NCBI GenBank assembly: GCA_944376605.1
Contig: CALWDE010000003.1
Span: 62,001-126,000 of the forward strand
Reading direction: 5' to 3'
Source of the DNA: an uncultured Bacilli bacterium
GTDB lineage: Bacteria > Bacillota_I > Bacilli_A > RFN20 > CAG-826
Length of the DNA stretch: 64,000 nt
Shown here: one piece after another, positions 48,143 to 58,192 of the stretch
Position numbering within the stretch: the stretch's first letter is position 1
Layout of the letters: the number at the start of each line of letters is the position of its first letter
The notes under the pieces: generated by a model
Databases searched by the model: none
Told to the model about the DNA's origin: nothing
Seen by the model: only the letters and a program-made list of their open reading frames with translations
Made by a program: the position numbers and the translations under genes

Positions 48143-49663
48143 ATGGACTATATTTTAAAGATGGAAGGTATTTCTAAATCCTTCTTTGGTGTTGAAGTTC
48201 TTCACCATGTGCATCTACATGTGGCAAGAGGAACCGTACACGCGCTCCTAGGGGAAAATGGCGCTGGGAAGAGCACGTTAATGAACATTCTCGGCGGTGT
48301 TTACACGAAAGATACGGGTAGTGTAGTTTTTGATGGCGAAACTTTAGAGGATATCACCATTAAAAAGGCAGAAGCGGCAGGGATCGCTTTTGTTCATCAG
48401 GAACTCAACTTTTTTAACACATTACCAGTTTATGAAAACATCTTCATTGGTAGAGAGTTAAAAAATAAATTTGGAATCTTAGATAAACCCAGGATGATTG
48501 AGGAATGTGAGCAGCTTTTTCATAGTTTAGGTGTTCATATCAATCCTCGCGCTCAGGTGAGTGAGTTACCCACCGGAGAAAAACAAATTATTCAAATCGT
48601 TAGAGCGATTCATTTAAAAGCAAAGTTATTTATTTTAGATGAGCCCACAACCGCATTATCAAATGCGGAAATTGAACACTTGTTCACTTTAATTCGACGT
48701 TTAAAAGATGAGGGTGCAACCTTTATCTTTATTTCACATAAAATGCCTGAAATCTTCGCTATTTGCGACGATTTTACAGTATTACGAAATGGTTCTTTAA
48801 TAAGCGAAGGACATATTAAAAACGCAAATCCTCTTGATATCACTCGTGATATTGCAGGAAAGAGCTTAGAGAATAGCAATGTTTATCAGCCAAGAGAACT
48901 TGGGAAAATTGTTCTAGAAGTTTCTCATCTCACTGGGCTAGGTTTTGAAGATATTTCTTTCAAAGCAAGAAAAGGTGAGATTATTGGCCTTACTGGTTTA
49001 CAAGGGGCAGGTTCTTCTGAATTATTGCAGACTTTATTTGGTGTTAACCGTGCTTTAGAAGGCACTGTTACTGTTCAGGGGAAAGAATTAAAAACTGGAT
49101 CGATAAAAAGAGCGATGGAAGCAGGAATTGGAATGATTCCTTCCAACCGTAAGGAGAATTCGGTTATTCCTCTTATGTCGCTTCTTGAGAATGAGTATAT
49201 TTCGGAACATCAATTAAGTTTCAAACATCAATACATCTCTTACGGTAAAGAGAAGAATAAATTCGAAAAAATTAAGGGAGATATGAAGATTAAATGCAAT
49301 TCTCCTGATGATTTGATTGTCTCTTTGTCGGGTGGAAACCAGCAAAAGGTTATCGTAGGACGCTGGCTTAACACGGATTGCGATATTTTGTTAATGGATA
49401 ATCCTACACAAGGTATTGACGTAGGTGCCAAAGAAGAAATTTATCAGTTGATGTTACGTCTAGCTTCTATAGGGAAAACGATTATCTTTAACACCCTAGA
49501 AATTGCGGAATTACAAAAAACTGCAGACGTCGTTTATGTTTTCTACCATGGAAAAATGGTTGCAGAATTGCCTCATGAAGACATTAACGAAGAAAATGTA
49601 ATGATGCACGCGACACAAGCAGTGCAAGTTTTAAAAGAAGGAGGATCGGAAAATGATCTTTAA
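48143..49663 (+). CDS. Sugar ABC transporter ATP-binding protein (RbsA/XylG type)
   Basis: Two nucleotide-binding domains in one chain, 506 residues. The first has Walker A GENGAGKST (about 38) and Walker B LFILDEPTTALS; its signature motif is LPTGEKQ. The second has a degenerate Walker A (GLQGAGSSEL), signature LSGGNQQKV (about 394) and DNPTQGIDVGAK, the usual RbsA asymmetry. Overlaps the permease start by 11 bases, whose SD (GGAGGA) lies inside this gene. Confidence 0.94.
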   Translation: MDYILKMEGISKSFFGVEVLHHVHLHVARGTVHALLGENGAGKSTLMNILGGVYTKDTGSVVFDGETLEDITIKKAEAAGIAFVHQELNFFNTLPVYENIFIGRELKNKFGILDKPRMIEECEQLFHSLGVHINPRAQVSELPTGEKQIIQIVRAIHLKAKLFILDEPTTALSNAEIEHLFTLIRRLKDEGATFIFISHKMPEIFAICDDFTVLRNGSLISEGHIKNANPLDITRDIAGKSLENSNVYQPRELGKIVLEVSHLTGLGFEDISFKARKGEIIGLTGLQGAGSSELLQTLFGVNRALEGTVTVQGKELKTGSIKRAMEAGIGMIPSNRKENSVIPLMSLLENEYISEHQLSFKHQYISYGKEKNKFEKIKGDMKIKCNSPDDLIVSLSGGNQQKVIVGRWLNTDCDILLMDNPTQGIDVGAKEEIYQLMLRLASIGKTIIFNTLEIAELQKTADVVYVFYHGKMVAELPHEDINEENVMMHATQAVQVLKEGGSENDL

Positions 49664-51356
49664 CCGTAAAACATCAGCAGGTCCAGGCCCTCGTGGTGCT
49701 TCCCTAACTTGGCAAGACGCTCCACGTTTACTTGGACTTTCTTGGAAGAACTTTAGCTTCCTCTACATTTTCCTTGGCATCTTCATTATTTACGCCATTG
49801 TAAACCCTTATTTAACTTGGGGTAGCACAATCAACGTTTTAACACAGAGTGTAGTTTGGTGCGTGATGGGCCTTGGCATGGGACTTATTATCATTACCGG
49901 TGATATTGATTTGTCGGTTGGCTCGAACATGGCCTTCTCTGGCGGATTATCCATTTTGATTTATCAGATGATTGTTGGTAAAAATCAAGCGATGGCCCCG
50001 TGGGGAACTCTTGTCATTTTGCTGCTTACTGTTACCATCAGCGCCGCGATTGGTTTCTTAAATGGCTTCATGGTTGGTAAACTAAAAATGCCAGCATTCA
50101 TCGCTACTTTAGGCACCATGTTAATCTTCCGCTCTTTAGGAAAATATACAAGGAATCAGACTCTTGGTTTAGTTTCTACTGGGGAAGCGGCTGGCTTTAT
50201 TTATAGCCTTGGTTCGCATAGCTCTGGCTGGTTAATGTATGACATTGGAAACTATAATTTTGACGGAATATTCCCTGTCATGGGTATCTTATGCATCATC
50301 ATTGTTGCGCTTGCTTGGTTCTTCTCTAAATACACAAAGATGGGCAGAAGGTTCTACGCGATTGGCTCGAATCCTCAAGCTGCCCAACTTGCTGGTATTA
50401 ATGTTGGTTGGAACCGCGTCTTAGTATTCACCATTGCTGGCGCTTTAGTTGGCCTTGCTTCCTTCTTCTTTATTGCCTATTCTGGTTCGATTGACTCGAA
50501 TGCTTCTGGTACTAGCTATGAGTTATATACCATTGCTTCTTGTATTATCGGCGGAATTTCGATGACGGGCGGAAAAGGGAACCTTGTTGGAGTTCTCTTT
50601 GGAGCAATGTCCTTCACTCTTATTGATAAGATTATTGCTGCAGTTGGTTTAGATCCCTTAATCAACGACACCATCAAAGGCGCGATTCTTCTTATTGCTG
50701 TCATTCTTCAGCTACTAAAACTTGATAGCGTCAAAGCGATGATACGCAATGTGCAAAATGCAAATTACATTTCTCGTTCTGCTTGTGAAACCTTCTTAAA
50801 AGAACTTTTACCAGAAGAATATAACAAGTTAGAAGAAAGCAAGAGCGAACTTGCTGCTGCAAAAGCAGACTATAAAGAAAAAGAAGAAGCTTCTTTAGAC
50901 AAAGTTTATGCAGCAAAGTGGATGATTGGTGTTTCCTTAGAAGATTTAAAGAAGGTCGAGGATAAGGAAGCTGAAATTGCACTTTTGAAAGAAACTGTGA
51001 ATAAACAGATTGAAGATTTAAAGAAGAGCGAAGATCCTTCTAGTAAAGAAGAAATTGCAAAATTAAAGGCTGATTTGCAGGAAAAATGCAAATCTCTCCA
51101 TGCAGAATTAACTGCTTTAAAAGAGCAGGCAAGAAGCAAGGGAGAAGAACTTGCTCCTGCACAAAAGGCCACCTATGAAGAAGCTAAGAAAGAACTTGAA
51201 GCTTTGCGCGCTTCTTGGAAGGAAGAAAACACTTCACTCAAAGCGAAGTTAAAAGAAGCCAAAGAGAATCTTGCTACGGCAAGCGAACCTCATAAGGCTG
51301 AAATTGCCGAAGTGAAGAAGAATAACAGTGTCTGGAAAAATCTAACAAAGCATTAA
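49653..51356 (+). CDS. Sugar ABC transporter permease (RbsC/XylH type) with long C-terminal coiled coil
   Basis: 567 residues, about 220 more than RbsC. Residues about 1-355 are a normal permease: multiple membrane helices, GDIDLSVGSNMAFSGG, LGTMLIFRSLGKY and the NPQAAQLAGINV loop that contacts the ATPase. Residues about 360-567 are a highly charged Lys/Glu/Ala-rich heptad region (ELAAAKADYKEKEEASLDKV, EKCKSLHAELTALKEQARSK), predicted to be a cytoplasmic coiled coil. No frameshift or separate start explains the extension; it is continuous with the permease. Its role is unknown. Confidence 0.9.
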   Translation: MIFNRKTSAGPGPRGASLTWQDAPRLLGLSWKNFSFLYIFLGIFIIYAIVNPYLTWGSTINVLTQSVVWCVMGLGMGLIIITGDIDLSVGSNMAFSGGLSILIYQMIVGKNQAMAPWGTLVILLLTVTISAAIGFLNGFMVGKLKMPAFIATLGTMLIFRSLGKYTRNQTLGLVSTGEAAGFIYSLGSHSSGWLMYDIGNYNFDGIFPVMGILCIIIVALAWFFSKYTKMGRRFYAIGSNPQAAQLAGINVGWNRVLVFTIAGALVGLASFFFIAYSGSIDSNASGTSYELYTIASCIIGGISMTGGKGNLVGVLFGAMSFTLIDKIIAAVGLDPLINDTIKGAILLIAVILQLLKLDSVKAMIRNVQNANYISRSACETFLKELLPEEYNKLEESKSELAAAKADYKEKEEASLDKVYAAKWMIGVSLEDLKKVEDKEAEIALLKETVNKQIEDLKKSEDPSSKEEIAKLKADLQEKCKSLHAELTALKEQARSKGEELAPAQKATYEEAKKELEALRASWKEENTSLKAKLKEAKENLATASEPHKAEIAEVKKNNSVWKNLTKH

Positions 51357-54280: not shown

Positions 54281-54457
54281 ATGGCGATTAAAGTGGTCAT
54301 CCGTCAGGATGAAGGTGTAGAAGAAGGCATTCGTCGTTTCAAAAGAGCGGTGAATAAGTCTGGCGTCGTAATGGAAATGAGAAAGCGTGAGTTTTATCTC
54401 AAAACTGCCTTACGTCGTAAACAAAAGAGCGAAATGGCTCGTCGTAAAAAGTGGTAA
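54281..54457 (+). CDS. rpsU: 30S ribosomal protein S21
   Basis: 58-residue basic ribosomal protein. Starts MAIKVVIRQDEGVEEGIRRF and ends in a Lys/Arg-rich tail, all typical. The perfect SD AAGGAGGTGA precedes the ATG by five bases; an in-frame GTG at 54272 lies inside it and is rejected. TATATT at 54245-54250 is the likely -10. Separate transcript with its own terminator. Confidence 0.96.
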   Translation: MAIKVVIRQDEGVEEGIRRFKRAVNKSGVVMEMRKREFYLKTALRRKQKSEMARRKKW

Positions 54458-54545: not shown

Positions 54546-55730
54546 ATGGATAGTGAAATTTATCAAGCAAAGAATGATACTTGTGGTTACAGTGCATTAA
54601 GAACTTTCTTAATAGAGTTAACGCATCAAAAAGGGTGGCGTTATTTACCTCGTCTTCATGATGGGGCAATGGATTTAAGAGAGCTTTCAACTTTAGCAAG
54701 TGATGCTGGCGTTACTTTAGCGTGGAAAAGAGCAAACTACGCAAATGCCATTTATGAGGCGAAACGTTTCCCCATCTTATTACTATTAAATGAAGGGAAG
54801 CAGGGACATTTAGTTACCTTATTAAAAAAGAAAAAGAATATGTTTCTTATTGCGGATCCTAAAAACGGAAAAGAGTGGATTTCCGGCGCATTACTGCAGG
54901 AAAAATGGACTTTAATATTTGGAGAAGGAAAGATAGAAAAGAAAGAAACTCCGCCTAAGAAGAAGCGGCTTATTGACCCATTTGCTTTGCCGCTTCTACT
55001 AGCCTTTTTGTTTTTAGAGCTGGTGTTTTTCTTTCTTGGAATCTCTTTTTTACAAGAAGATCCAAGATTGTTATATGCGATTATCTTTCTCACACTTGGT
55101 GTTATCTTTTTTGCAGTGAGAGAAGGTAGTTCTTTTTACTTTATGCACCAATTTGAAGAGAAACATTTATCGCTTATTGCAAAAGGAAGCAAGGCAGATG
55201 ATTACCTTCTCTTTCAAAAGGCAAAAAGTACCTTTCTATTTTCTCCATCTTCTGCGTTTGCTTCTTTGCTTATTGCCCTCACTTTATATGTCTATCTTGC
55301 TTTATGGGGAGTTGGTTATGCTTTAGCGGGTGCCTTGCTCATTCTTCTTGAAGTACTTTATTGCCCTTTATTTGCTACTTTAAAAAAGGAAGAAAGGCGT
55401 TTAGAGAGGAGAGAAGCCCTTCTTTTATCACGTCCTTTTGAGAGAAAATTCGCGAGAAAAATTGGAAGAGAAGGGGAAAAACTTGCTTTAAAGATGCGCG
55501 TTGTGGATTTAATTACTTATCTGCCTTTGTTTTTACTTTCTTTCTTAGCGTTATACCAAAGTGAAACATCTTCTTTTTATGCTTATATTACTGCCTTTTT
55601 AGCCTTATTCCTTTTTGAAAAAAGTTTGCGTCCTGCTTTGCACTATCCTTTAGGTAAAAAAGAAAGGCGGAAAATAGAGGACGCTTTCTTTGAACGCTTT
55701 CTCTCGCTATCTGAGCCAAACCAAGTGTAA
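54546..55730 (+). CDS. C39-type peptidase fused to a six-TM domain, no ATPase
   Basis: 394 residues. The first 130 form a C39 Cys peptidase domain: catalytic Cys13 in NDTCGYSA, His88 in KQGHLV and Asp104 in IADPKNG. The H-D spacing of 16 equals that in bacteriocin-exporter peptidases. After a Lys-rich linker come about six membrane helices (within about 143-380) in the pairing expected for an ABC exporter transmembrane domain. The nucleotide-binding domain is absent and none is encoded next to it. It could cleave and release leader peptides without ATP-driven export, or pair with a distant ATPase. There is no SD; a poor -10 (TATATC) is nearby. Confidence 0.77.
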   Translation: MDSEIYQAKNDTCGYSALRTFLIELTHQKGWRYLPRLHDGAMDLRELSTLASDAGVTLAWKRANYANAIYEAKRFPILLLLNEGKQGHLVTLLKKKKNMFLIADPKNGKEWISGALLQEKWTLIFGEGKIEKKETPPKKKRLIDPFALPLLLAFLFLELVFFFLGISFLQEDPRLLYAIIFLTLGVIFFAVREGSSFYFMHQFEEKHLSLIAKGSKADDYLLFQKAKSTFLFSPSSAFASLLIALTLYVYLALWGVGYALAGALLILLEVLYCPLFATLKKEERRLERREALLLSRPFERKFARKIGREGEKLALKMRVVDLITYLPLFLLSFLALYQSETSSFYAYITAFLALFLFEKSLRPALHYPLGKKERRKIEDAFFERFLSLSEPNQV

Positions 55731-55740: not shown

Positions 55741-56214
55741 ATGGAAATTGATTTTTCTTCGTATATTGATACGAAATATGATGCTTTAGAGGCTCGCTAT
55801 AAAAAAATTGCAGAAGAAGCTTTTTCAAGGCTCTCTGTACCGGATGATTACGAAGTTGACGTTACTCTTGTAGATGAGAAGACCATTCAAGAAATGAATC
55901 GTAATTATCGGGGAGTTGACCGCGTTACTGACGTGATTTCTTTTGCTTATAATGAAGGAGAAGACCCTGTATCTGCCTTTTATGCGCCTGGGATGACCCG
56001 AATATTGGGAGAAATTTATATTTGTGTTCCTCGCGCAATTAGCCAGGCAGAAGAAATTGGAAATAGTCTAGGAAGAGAGCTTTGCTTCCTTTTTACGCAC
56101 GGGTTATTACATCTGCTTGGTTATGATCATATGAATGAAGAAGAGGCTAAAGTGATGTTTTCTTTGCAAGAAGAAATCTTAAATGTACTAGGAGGGGACT
56201 ATGGAACCTATTGA
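55741..56214 (+). CDS. ybeY: Endoribonuclease YbeY (rRNA maturation)
   Basis: Zinc metalloprotein needed for 16S rRNA 3' end maturation and ribosome quality control. The signature THGLLHLLGYDHM with three His ligands is near residue 120, after VTDVISFAYNE. 157 residues. Start 55741 (MEIDFSSYID) is preferred over the frame's earlier start inside the C39 gene because of the -10 spacing. phoH and dgkA, which usually flank it, are missing. It overlaps cdd by 14 bases. Confidence 0.94.
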   Translation: MEIDFSSYIDTKYDALEARYKKIAEEAFSRLSVPDDYEVDVTLVDEKTIQEMNRNYRGVDRVTDVISFAYNEGEDPVSAFYAPGMTRILGEIYICVPRAISQAEEIGNSLGRELCFLFTHGLLHLLGYDHMNEEEAKVMFSLQEEILNVLGGDYGTY

Positions 56215-56602
56215 ATTACTAGAAAAGGCAAAACAGGCGCGTGCGCTTTCTTATTCTCCTTATAGCCATTTTGCTGTTGGCGCCGCTATTTTATGCAAAG
56301 ATGGCAGTGTCTATTTAGGGGCTAATATAGAGAACGCTAGTTATCCTTTATGTATGTGCGCGGAACGTAATGCTTTATATCACGCCTATATGGAAGGAAA
56401 AAAGAAAGAAGATTTTGTTGCCTTAGCTATTGTTGCGGATAGTCCGCGCCCAGTTAGTCCATGCGGAGCATGTCGGCAAGTTCTCTCGGAATTATTTCCG
56501 CAAAAAGCCCCTATTTATTTAGGTAATTTAGCAGGAGAAAAGGAAGAAACGAACATTGAAACTCTTCTTCCTTACGCTTTTATGGACGAGGATATGAAAT
56601 GA
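56201..56602 (+). CDS. cdd: Cytidine deaminase
   Basis: Deaminates cytidine and deoxycytidine to uridine forms for salvage. Zinc/catalytic motifs CAERNAL (Cys ligand and catalytic Glu) and PCGACRQVL are present; 133 residues is the tetrameric Bacillus type. SD TAGGAGG inside ybeY. Overlaps era by four bases. Confidence 0.96.
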   Translation: MEPIELLEKAKQARALSYSPYSHFAVGAAILCKDGSVYLGANIENASYPLCMCAERNALYHAYMEGKKKEDFVALAIVADSPRPVSPCGACRQVLSELFPQKAPIYLGNLAGEKEETNIETLLPYAFMDEDMK

Positions 56603-57489
56603 AAGTTGGTACGGTTGCGATTTTAGGTTTGCCAAATGCCGGGAAAAGCACTTTTTTAAATGCTTTATTATCCAAAAAAGTGTCCATTGTGACTCCTAAA
56701 GCCCAAACAACAAGAGACGATATTATTGGCATTTATGAAGATTCTAGTTCACAAATTGCCTTTATTGACACTCCTGGTCTCATCAAGGGCAGCAATGTTT
56801 TGGAAAAAGAGATGATGCGCAAGGCAAGAAGAGCGCTTTCTGGGATTGACTGCCTCTTATTTATTATTGATGTTCATGAAAAAATCGAAGAGGCGTATGC
56901 TGCTTTTTCCCATATTAAAACGGACGCTCCGATTTTAATTTTACTCAATAAAATTGATTTAATGCGTGCTCCAGAAATGGAAAAGAAAAAAGAAGAGGTA
57001 GCAAAATTATTTGCCCCTCATCCTTTCTTAGAATTAAGCGCAAAAAATAATTTTGGTTTAAAAGAAGCTAGAGATTGGGTTACCTCACATCTTCCAGAAG
57101 GAGAACCTTTTTACGATGAAGGAACCCTCACTGACAAGGATATTCCTTTCTTTATTCAAGAATGCGTTAGAGAAAAGCTTCTTCGCTATTTAAGAAATGA
57201 AGTACCGCATCAATGTGCTGTCGCTGTGGAGCATTTATTGGAAGATGATAAAAATGTGTCTGCTAAAGTAAGAATTTTTGTGGACCGAGATTCTCAAAAA
57301 GGGATTTTGATAGGTAAAAACGGCAGCATGATTGAAAAAATTCGTAATAGCGCCGAGCATGAGTTATCTTCTCGCCTCAATAAATATGTTTCATTACATT
57401 TATTTGTGCAGGTGTCTCCTAAGTGGCGTGATGATCCGCGTATTTTGGGAAAATTAGGTTATGTCAGAGGGAAAGGAAATAAGGACTAA
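56599..57489 (+). CDS. era: GTPase Era
   Basis: Ribosome-assembly GTPase that binds the 3' end of 16S rRNA. G1 GLPNAGKST (about 10-18), G3 DTPGLI, G4 NKIDLM, then a C-terminal KH domain with GILIGKNGSMIEKI (about 233). 296 residues. Same order (ybeY-cdd-era-recO) as in Bacillus. recO starts inside its last 29 bases. Confidence 0.97.
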   Translation: MKVGTVAILGLPNAGKSTFLNALLSKKVSIVTPKAQTTRDDIIGIYEDSSSQIAFIDTPGLIKGSNVLEKEMMRKARRALSGIDCLLFIIDVHEKIEEAYAAFSHIKTDAPILILLNKIDLMRAPEMEKKKEEVAKLFAPHPFLELSAKNNFGLKEARDWVTSHLPEGEPFYDEGTLTDKDIPFFIQECVREKLLRYLRNEVPHQCAVAVEHLLEDDKNVSAKVRIFVDRDSQKGILIGKNGSMIEKIRNSAEHELSSRLNKYVSLHLFVQVSPKWRDDPRILGKLGYVRGKGNKD

Positions 57490-58192
57490 AGGATTCCTTT
57501 TAAAAAGTGTTCCGTATCACGAGACTTCTTCGATAGCAACAATCTTAACAGAAGACGGTTTTCTAAGTTTTCGTGCTTCTGGTGTCTATAAAAAGAATAG
57601 TCATTATCTGCCTCTTTTTAATCTTATGGCGGAGAGTTATTTTTTGCTCAAAGAAGGAAAGGGTGATTATCTCCTTTTTAAAGAAGGAGAACTGCTTTCT
57701 TTTCCTAAAGGCAATCTAGAAACGCTACTTGCCTATTCTTTTTTAGGAGAAATTACTTGGAGCAGTGCGAAGGGGATAGATGGGAAAGAGCTTTATCCTT
57801 ATTTAGCGCTTGCGACAAAATTTTTAAAAGAAGGAAAAGATCCTCTTTCTATCGTAACAAGTTATTTAGCGATATGTTTGCGTCTTATGGGCTATGGCCT
57901 TACGGTAGATCACTGCGTCCTCTGCGGAAAAGAAAAAGGGATTGTAGGGGTGTCTTTTGAAGAAGGCGGCTTTATTTGCCACGATGAGAAAAGAGAAGGG
58001 GCGCATTATGGCAAAACATATTGTCAAGTTGCCTACTTCACTTTTAAGGTGGATAAAAGTACATGGACTGGCCAAAATTTACCTCGCGAAGACACTCTTC
58101 TTTATTTTAAAGACCTCACCTCTTACTACACGGAACAATTAGGAAAGAAAATTGAGGGTTTATCGATGTTTTTTGACGTATTGAAAGGCTAG
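57461..58192 (+). CDS. recO: DNA repair protein RecO
   Basis: Loads RecA onto SSB-coated DNA together with RecR. N-terminal OB fold (RTKGFLLKSVPYHETSSIATILTEDGFLSF) and a C-terminal helical domain with the Cys-rich zinc site CVLCGKEK ... CH. 243 residues. No good SD; coupled to era by overlap. Confidence 0.93.
   Translation: MSEGKEIRTKGFLLKSVPYHETSSIATILTEDGFLSFRASGVYKKNSHYLPLFNLMAESYFLLKEGKGDYLLFKEGELLSFPKGNLETLLAYSFLGEITWSSAKGIDGKELYPYLALATKFLKEGKDPLSIVTSYLAICLRLMGYGLTVDHCVLCGKEKGIVGVSFEEGGFICHDEKREGAHYGKTYCQVAYFTFKVDKSTWTGQNLPREDTLLYFKDLTSYYTEQLGKKIEGLSMFFDVLKG

What the first reader, a model, noticed from the sequence alone, without database searches (positions are those of the whole stretch)
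54546..55730. C39 peptidase on an exporter-like TM domain with no ATPase
Cys13-His88-Asp104 has the exact 16-residue H-D spacing of peptidase-containing ABC transporters, followed by six TM helices, but the chain ends before any nucleotide-binding domain. It sits in the ribosome/RNA cluster between rpsU and ybeY, where phoH is often found, not near a bacteriocin gene. It may be a new type of membrane leader peptidase.
Basis: partly seen in the sequence, partly recalled or inferred. Interest (0 to 1): 0.62.

Follow-up and report, generated by a model that had tools for sequence, protein, structure and literature searches.

The report
Exporter that lost its ATP motor
A gut bacterium carries what was once an ATP-driven, peptide-cutting export pump; an entire order of related bacteria has discarded the motor but kept the cutting enzyme's active site, at the same spot beside ribosome genes where mycoplasmas keep the complete pump, which suggests that the cutting, not the pumping, is the job that matters there.

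Summary
54546-55730 (+) encodes 394 aa: a C39 peptidase domain (Cys13, His88, Asp104, 16-residue H-D spacing) plus a six-helix domain and no nucleotide-binding domain (NBD). A confident model (pLDDT 91) superposes on the transporter PCAT1 end to end (Z 22.8).

It is not a truncation artefact. Nearly every genome searched in the order has it in NBD-less form, mostly as rpsU-X-ybeY-cdd-era. Outside the order, 13 of 13 PCATs checked from Mycoplasma-type (TGA=Trp) families and one further Bacilli family sit just upstream of ybeY as complete ~680-aa transporters, one of them in NCBI's Mbov_0121 family; JCVI-syn3A gene 0401, function unknown, appears to be the same kind. Inside the order the gene shrinks stepwise down to a bare C39 domain, while the catalytic residues stay. 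The coupling helices that dock onto NBDs are gone from the model; the genome has no unassigned exporter NBD and only this one C39 protein.

Best explanation: an ATP-independent, membrane-anchored C39 endopeptidase derived from a PCAT. Substrate unknown; no double-glycine leader was found. New variant of a known kind. It makes the function of the mycoplasma orthologues testable, because the ATPase proved dispensable and the active site did not.

The parts
54546..55730 (+). Whole gene X: C39 peptidase + six-helix exporter-like domain, no NBD (394 aa)
   Evidence: ORF and translation; full-length homologues of the same size across the order; model matches PCAT1 over its whole length
54546..54938 (+). 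C39 peptidase domain, residues 1-131, cytosolic by homology
   Evidence: Pfam PF03412 E 5.1e-9; VIA-align to ComA peptidase 3k8u Z 16.3, 2.2 A over 128 residues
54564..54566 (+). Gln7, equivalent of the proposed oxyanion-hole Gln, six residues before Cys13
   Evidence: Kept in 78 of 81 NBD-less rows that cover the column
54582..54584 (+). Cys13, catalytic nucleophile
   Evidence: Invariant in A1, 83 of 83
54807..54809 (+). His88, catalytic base
   Evidence: Invariant in A1, 84 of 84
54855..54857 (+). Asp104, third member of the triad
   Evidence: Invariant in A1, 82 of 84
54984..55703 (+). Six-helix domain: TM1 54984-55052, TM2 55059-55175, TM3 55194-55304, TM4 55311-55430, TM5 55443-55550, TM6 55575-55703
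   Evidence: DSSP on the AlphaFold model, pLDDT about 80-97 over the helices; ABC exporters MsbA, TM287/288, TmrAB, TAP match residues ~141-392 at Z 12-14
55176..55193 (+). Shortened cytosolic turn TM2-TM3 (residues 211-216): no coupling helix 1
   Evidence: 6 residues and no helix here; 12 residues with helix 249-254 in the modelled full-length relative
55431..55442 (+). Shortened cytosolic turn TM4-TM5 (residues 296-299): no coupling helix 2
   Evidence: 4 residues here; 10 residues with helix 349-354, and TM5 of 53 instead of 36 residues, in the full-length relative; profile alignment puts the largest deletion (about 28 residues) here
54281..54457 (+). rpsU (bS21), conserved upstream neighbour
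   Evidence: Translation; same order of genes in most f1 loci tested
55741..56214 (+). ybeY (16S rRNA-maturation RNase), conserved downstream neighbour
56201..58192 (+). cdd (56201-56602), era (56599-57489), recO (57461-58192), rest of the conserved operon

Best explanation
The gene is an ATPase-less descendant of the peptidase-containing ABC transporter (PCAT) that Mycoplasma-type bacteria (Mbov_0121 family) and another Bacilli family keep at the same chromosomal place, upstream of ybeY. It works as a membrane-anchored C39 cysteine endopeptidase: Cys13-His88-Asp104 cuts a cytosolic or membrane-presented substrate, and the six-helix domain, probably a dimer as in its ancestor, is kept as anchor and docking chamber and not as an ATP-driven pump. 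In PCAT1 the ATP-bound, NBD-dimerised state pulls the peptidase domains off the core, which prevents uncoupled cleavage; with no NBD this brake cannot operate, so the peptidase would be constantly available. Shown here: domain content, fold, kept active site, purifying selection on both domains, synteny with full PCATs, loss of coupling helices, no unassigned exporter NBD in the genome. Inferred: that it cleaves, that it dimerises, that it does not transport, and the substrate.
For: Fold: PCAT1 over model 1-394, Z 22.8, 387 aligned. Full PCATs immediately upstream of ybeY in 13 of 13 loci from f20, f11, f22, f29, with Cys/His/Asp and Walker A, signature and Walker B residues invariant; 0 of 12 PCATs from other families or second copies lie next to ybeY. 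L093 passes the Mbov_0121 equivalog cut-off (509 against 500 bits) and 19 of 22 NBD-less members match that same model, far more than any other. Profile-profile match of NBD-less family to these PCATs: E 1.2e-30, probability 99.9. Domain erosion with triad retention: NBD-less with longer membrane domain in f8, short form in f1/f3/f5, C39-only 130-176 aa in f2 and f4, most of them directly before ybeY. Purifying selection, dN/dS 0.03-0.25, on both domains. Coupling helices absent from the model. One C39 gene in the genome; the eight exporter-type NBDs most like a PCAT NBD are exactly the eight already fused to ABC_membrane domains. Regulation in PCAT1: PMC8794836.
Against: No substrate found: TIGR01847 rings in 0 of 41 genomes (a 15-residue model, weak) and no convincing leader in the window. 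Proteolysis is inferred from sequence only. A residual transport role without ATP, or the use of a distant NBD, is not excluded. The C39 tree (128 columns) makes the NBD-less proteins one group (99/98) but does not resolve whether the ybeY-locus PCATs are their closest kin, so orthology rests on synteny and profile matches. One member has Phe and one Glu in place of the Asp.
Confidence: 0.7

Rival explanations
1. It is a split exporter: an NBD encoded elsewhere assembles with this membrane domain, and it works as an ordinary PCAT.
For: Exporters with separate NBD chains exist in general; ABC NBDs are plentiful in the genome (29 matches).
Against: All eight exporter-type NBDs are already fused to their own membrane domains. 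Both coupling helices and much of the cytosolic helix extensions are missing in the model. No NBD gene sits at the locus in any of the order's genomes examined; even C39-only forms exist at the locus.
Confidence: 0.07
2. It is a dedicated double-glycine leader peptidase whose cut peptides are exported by another transporter, for example one of the four exporter pairs in the genome; that is, ordinary bacteriocin or signal-peptide maturation with the pump moved to another gene.
For: C39 peptidases known to date mostly cut double-glycine leaders; four pairs of ABC half-exporters are present; stand-alone C39 enzymes such as FapD exist and 5 of 22 members match that model weakly.
Against: No leader family match in 41 genomes; single-copy near-universal presence in an operon with ybeY and era is unlike bacteriocin genes; the same puzzle stands for mycoplasmas (PMC6609329 citing Dirix 2004).
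Confidence: 0.15
3. The active site is a relic and the protein serves as a channel, scaffold or lipid/peptide flippase by its membrane domain.
For: The membrane domain is under purifying selection as strong as the peptidase; in a few members Gln7 or Asp104 is lost.
Against: Cys and His are kept in every covered row and Asp in 82 of 84; in f2 and f4 it is the membrane domain that is lost and the C39 domain that stays.
Confidence: 0.06
4. It imports lipoyl-peptides or lipoyl-lysine and transfers lipoate by transamidation, as tentatively put into the JCVI-syn3A metabolic model for gene 0401.
For: Proposed in PMC6609329 to explain lipoylation without lipoyl transferases.
Against: Proposed there only to close a gap in the model; ATP-driven import is impossible for the NBD-less form; exporter fold; no link to pdh genes at the locus.
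Confidence: 0.02

Closest known systems
Mbov_0121 family peptidase domain-containing ABC transporter (NCBIfam NF045998); JCVI-syn3A gene 0401
   Same: C39 domain with the same triad, exporter-type membrane domain, same place upstream of ybeY(-cdd)-era in the mycoplasma-type loci tested, and the best-matching named family for 19 of 22 members.
   Different: Those keep a fused NBD with intact Walker A, signature and Walker B residues and long cytosolic helix extensions; the window protein scores 41.8 bits against a family cut-off of 500. That 0401 itself lies at this locus was not checked in sequence; the paper's numbering (0405 is glycyl-tRNA synthetase) agrees with it.
PCAT1 of Clostridium thermocellum (Acetivibrio) and other AMS/PCAT bacteriocin exporters (TIGR01193, TIGR03796)
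   Same: Whole-chain fold match (Z 22.8), peptidase N-terminal to six helices, Cys/His/Asp and Gln.
   Different: No NBD, no coupling helices, about 70 residues shorter over the matching part, no cognate peptide gene nearby.
Stand-alone C39 peptidases (FapD, FilB, LahT150 as an isolated domain)
   Same: C39 enzyme that needs no ATPase to cut (LahT150 is active alone in vitro).
   Different: Here the C39 domain is fused to an ABC-exporter membrane domain; FapD and FilB belong to amyloid or pilus systems, of which nothing was seen at this locus.
HlyB-type exporters with a C39-like domain
   Same: C39-like domain on an ABC exporter.
   Different: The mirror image: HlyB lost the catalytic Cys and kept the ATPase; this family lost the ATPase and kept the Cys (HlyB statement from general knowledge).

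Membership tests
Peptidase family C39 (PF03412) | C39 fold and sequence | tested here: met
   36.5 bits over a cut-off of 22; all 22 members match; structural Z 16.3 to ComA peptidase
Peptidase family C39 (PF03412) | Catalytic Cys-His-Asp with preceding Gln | tested here: met
Peptidase family C39 (PF03412) | Cleavage after a double-glycine type leader | not testable with these tools
   No assay; no candidate leader found
Peptidase-containing ABC transporter (PCAT) | ABC-exporter (type IV) six-helix membrane domain | tested here: met
   by sequence alone PF00664 does not match
Peptidase-containing ABC transporter (PCAT) | Nucleotide-binding domain fused at the C terminus | tested here: not met
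   Chain ends after TM6; no ABC_tran match in the window protein or among the 22 members
Peptidase-containing ABC transporter (PCAT) | Coupling helices that dock onto NBDs | tested here: not met
   Helices 249-254 and 349-354 of the modelled PCAT L097 have no counterpart; predicted models only
Mbov_0121 family (NF045998) | Score above the curated equivalog cut-off | tested here: not met
   41.8 against 500 bits; the model includes an NBD, so an NBD-less orthologue could hardly pass
Mbov_0121 family (NF045998) | Location upstream of ybeY | tested here: met
   Same neighbour in mycoplasma-type loci L092, L093, L098, L111-L113 and in the window
Stand-alone C39 processing peptidase (FapD type) | C39 without exporter membrane domain, in an amyloid or pilus gene cluster | tested here: not met
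   Six-helix domain present; neighbours are rpsU, ybeY, cdd, era

The most novel reading that the evidence does not exclude
The ybeY-locus C39 protein is a housekeeping protease of this order and of Mycoplasma-type bacteria, with a conserved non-bacteriocin substrate, perhaps tied to translation or membrane protein quality; the ABC transporter that carries it in mycoplasmas (including the minimal cell JCVI-syn3A) was repeatedly dispensable, so proteolysis and not export is the function under selection.
Probability: 0.35. Interest if true: 0.78.

Novelty: new variant of a known kind. Interest (0 to 1): 0.6.

Why it matters
PCATs are treated as machines in which cutting is coupled to ATP-driven export. 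Here a whole order keeps the cutting active site and the exporter-shaped membrane domain but has no ATPase, and some families keep the C39 domain alone. Because full-length relatives at the same locus occur in mycoplasmas, apparently including gene 0401 of JCVI-syn3A whose substrate has not been found, this natural deletion series says which part to study first: the C39 active site. It also gives a family in which leader-peptidase chemistry on an exporter scaffold can be studied without nucleotide control.

Tried and rejected
Hidden or frameshifted NBD next to the gene: rejected, ybeY starts 10 bases after the stop codon, and no NBD lies at the locus in relatives. NBD-like ORF between X and ybeY in G064 (L072:5264-6412): no ABC_tran match, profile comparison E 0.038, probability 1.4, and no such gene in 17 other genomes of that genus; not accepted as an NBD. 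Double-glycine leaders: TIGR01847 in 41 genomes found none, with only Lactococcus lactis ringing among the controls; a motif scan of the window gave 6 hits against 3 in the reversed sequence, none convincing. Apparent absences in some genomes: in G170, G037, G044, G051 and G056 a divergent or shortened copy was in fact upstream of ybeY; in G119, G128, G168 ybeY itself was not found, so a gap in assembly or search is likely. A C39-only tree could not place the ybeY-locus PCATs. Naming the organism: two scans of genome contigs gave only uncultured Firmicutes/Bacilli MAG titles for the nearest relatives. No held paper was found that describes an NBD-less PCAT; the held library is partial.

Full report
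Observation. The window holds an ORF at 54546-55730 (+), 394 aa, between rpsU (54281-54457) and ybeY (55741-56214), in the gene order rpsU-X-ybeY-cdd-era-recO-glyS-dnaG. Pfam finds Peptidase_C39 at residues 5-122 (E 5.1e-9) and nothing else above cut-off. The only NCBIfam match is the Mbov_0121 PCAT family, far below its cut-off (41.8 against 500 bits).

Fold. A model built from 22 relatives has mean pLDDT 91.4: a C39 domain (1-131) and six long helices. PCAT1 is the best match over the entire chain (Foldseek E 7.6e-12; VIA-align Z 22.8, 387 residues, model 1-394 on PCAT1 9-471). Other ABC exporters match the helical part alone at Z 12-14. So the membrane domain is an ABC-exporter fold although PF00664 does not see it by sequence.

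Distribution. Homologues of about 390-450 aa without NBD occur in 34 of 37 genomes of the genus at hand and matches were found in 224 of 245 genomes sampled from the order. Several of the rest do have the gene in divergent or shortened form. In the genus, ybeY lies right behind it in 31 of 33 loci, and the arrangement holds in most loci of families f1, f3 and f5. It is not a pseudogene: dN/dS is 0.03-0.25 for close pairs, in both domains, and Cys/His/Asp are kept in 83/83, 84/84 and 82/84 covered rows.

Origin. Outside the order the search finds full PCATs of about 650-750 aa. Two kinds separate by location. In f20 (seven genomes) and in families that read TGA as Trp (f11, f22, f29; six genomes) the PCAT sits immediately upstream of ybeY, with cdd, era or recO following in nearly all. 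The twelve other PCATs fetched (f14, f17, f18, f21, f28 and second copies in f1) do not. The ybeY-locus PCATs have invariant C39 triad and invariant NBD motifs; one of them passes the Mbov_0121 cut-off (509 bits). The NBD-less family aligns to them by profile with E 1.2e-30, and 19 of 22 members match the Mbov_0121 model. The C39 tree puts the NBD-less proteins on one side of a branch (99/98), in accord with one loss of the NBD, but is too short to show their nearest PCAT.

A deletion series made by evolution. Within the order the gene occurs as an NBD-less protein with a longer membrane domain in f8 (445-447 aa, one of them two genes from ybeY), as the short NBD-less form in f1, f3 and f5, and as a C39 domain with little or nothing behind it in f2 (171-176 aa, three genomes, all directly before ybeY) and f4 (132 and 157 aa directly before ybeY; 131 aa elsewhere in a third). 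Reading these short proteins, Cys, His and Asp are recognisable in each. Thus ATPase, and in places the membrane domain, were lost while the active site stayed.

No hidden motor. The window's genome has eight ABC_membrane proteins, all with fused NBD; a search with a PCAT NBD ranks exactly those eight first. Later matches belong to other ABC classes by size. The genome has one C39 protein, this one. In a model of the full-length relative L097 (mean pLDDT 80.7, so less sure) TM2 and TM5 have 48 and 53 residues and two short coupling helices (249-254, 349-354); in the window protein TM2 and TM5 have 39 and 36 residues and the turns are 6 and 4 residues without helix. The parts that would touch an NBD are therefore missing.

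Mechanism proposed. In PCAT1 the NBD-dimerised state releases the peptidase domains from the core, which prevents uncoupled cleavage (PMC8794836). Without NBDs this control is absent; the most economical reading is a constitutive, membrane-anchored C39 endopeptidase, the helices acting as anchor and substrate chamber. Shown: anatomy, fold, conservation, synteny, absence of a partner NBD among exporter types. Inferred: activity, dimer, substrate, lack of transport.

Substrate. None identified. The double-glycine model TIGR01847 rings in none of 41 genomes, and a motif scan of the window is at background. The same gap is on record for mycoplasmas: in JCVI-syn3A gene 0401 is annotated as a sublancin-type C39 transporter with no candidate peptide, and was tentatively modelled as a lipoyl-peptide importer (PMC6609329). 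The numbering in that paper (0405 = glycyl-tRNA synthetase) fits the same locus; I did not read that genome.

Verdict. A new variant of a known kind: an ATPase-less PCAT, probably a protease only. Its value lies in pointing to proteolysis as the selected function of an unexplained, widely kept mycoplasma gene.

Noticed in passing
L189:4484-5374, L190:2790-3659, L193:2065-2934, L208:461-1363: A single ORF of about 290-300 aa matches both ybeY and cdd: an apparent fusion of the YbeY RNase with cytidine deaminase in family f5 and in genus g32 of f1.
   Followed up: no
L096:4145-5839 (G410, family f17): A PCAT-like protein whose NBD has decayed: no ABC_tran match, signature and Walker B eroded and Walker A not aligned, yet the remnant still aligns to PCAT NBDs (E 2.3e-5). 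An independent, half-way loss of the ATPase.
   Followed up: partly
L072:5264-6412 (G064): Extra 383-aa ORF between gene X and ybeY, with a faint P-loop-like stretch and C-terminal membrane helices; not seen in 17 other genomes of that genus.
   Followed up: partly
L172 / L191 (G040, family f5): NBD-less copy in which the catalytic Asp is replaced by Phe (VYFPEKG) while Cys and His stay.
   Followed up: no
L094, L095 (G070, G065, genus g24) and L179 (G074): Some genomes of the order carry in addition a normal ~725-aa PCAT elsewhere, so the NBD-less copy is not simply their bacteriocin exporter.
   Followed up: partly
window 49653-51356: Sugar-type ABC permease followed in the same ORF by about 190 residues of Lys/Glu/Ala-rich, coiled-coil-like sequence, beside xylose isomerase and xylulokinase genes.
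   Followed up: no
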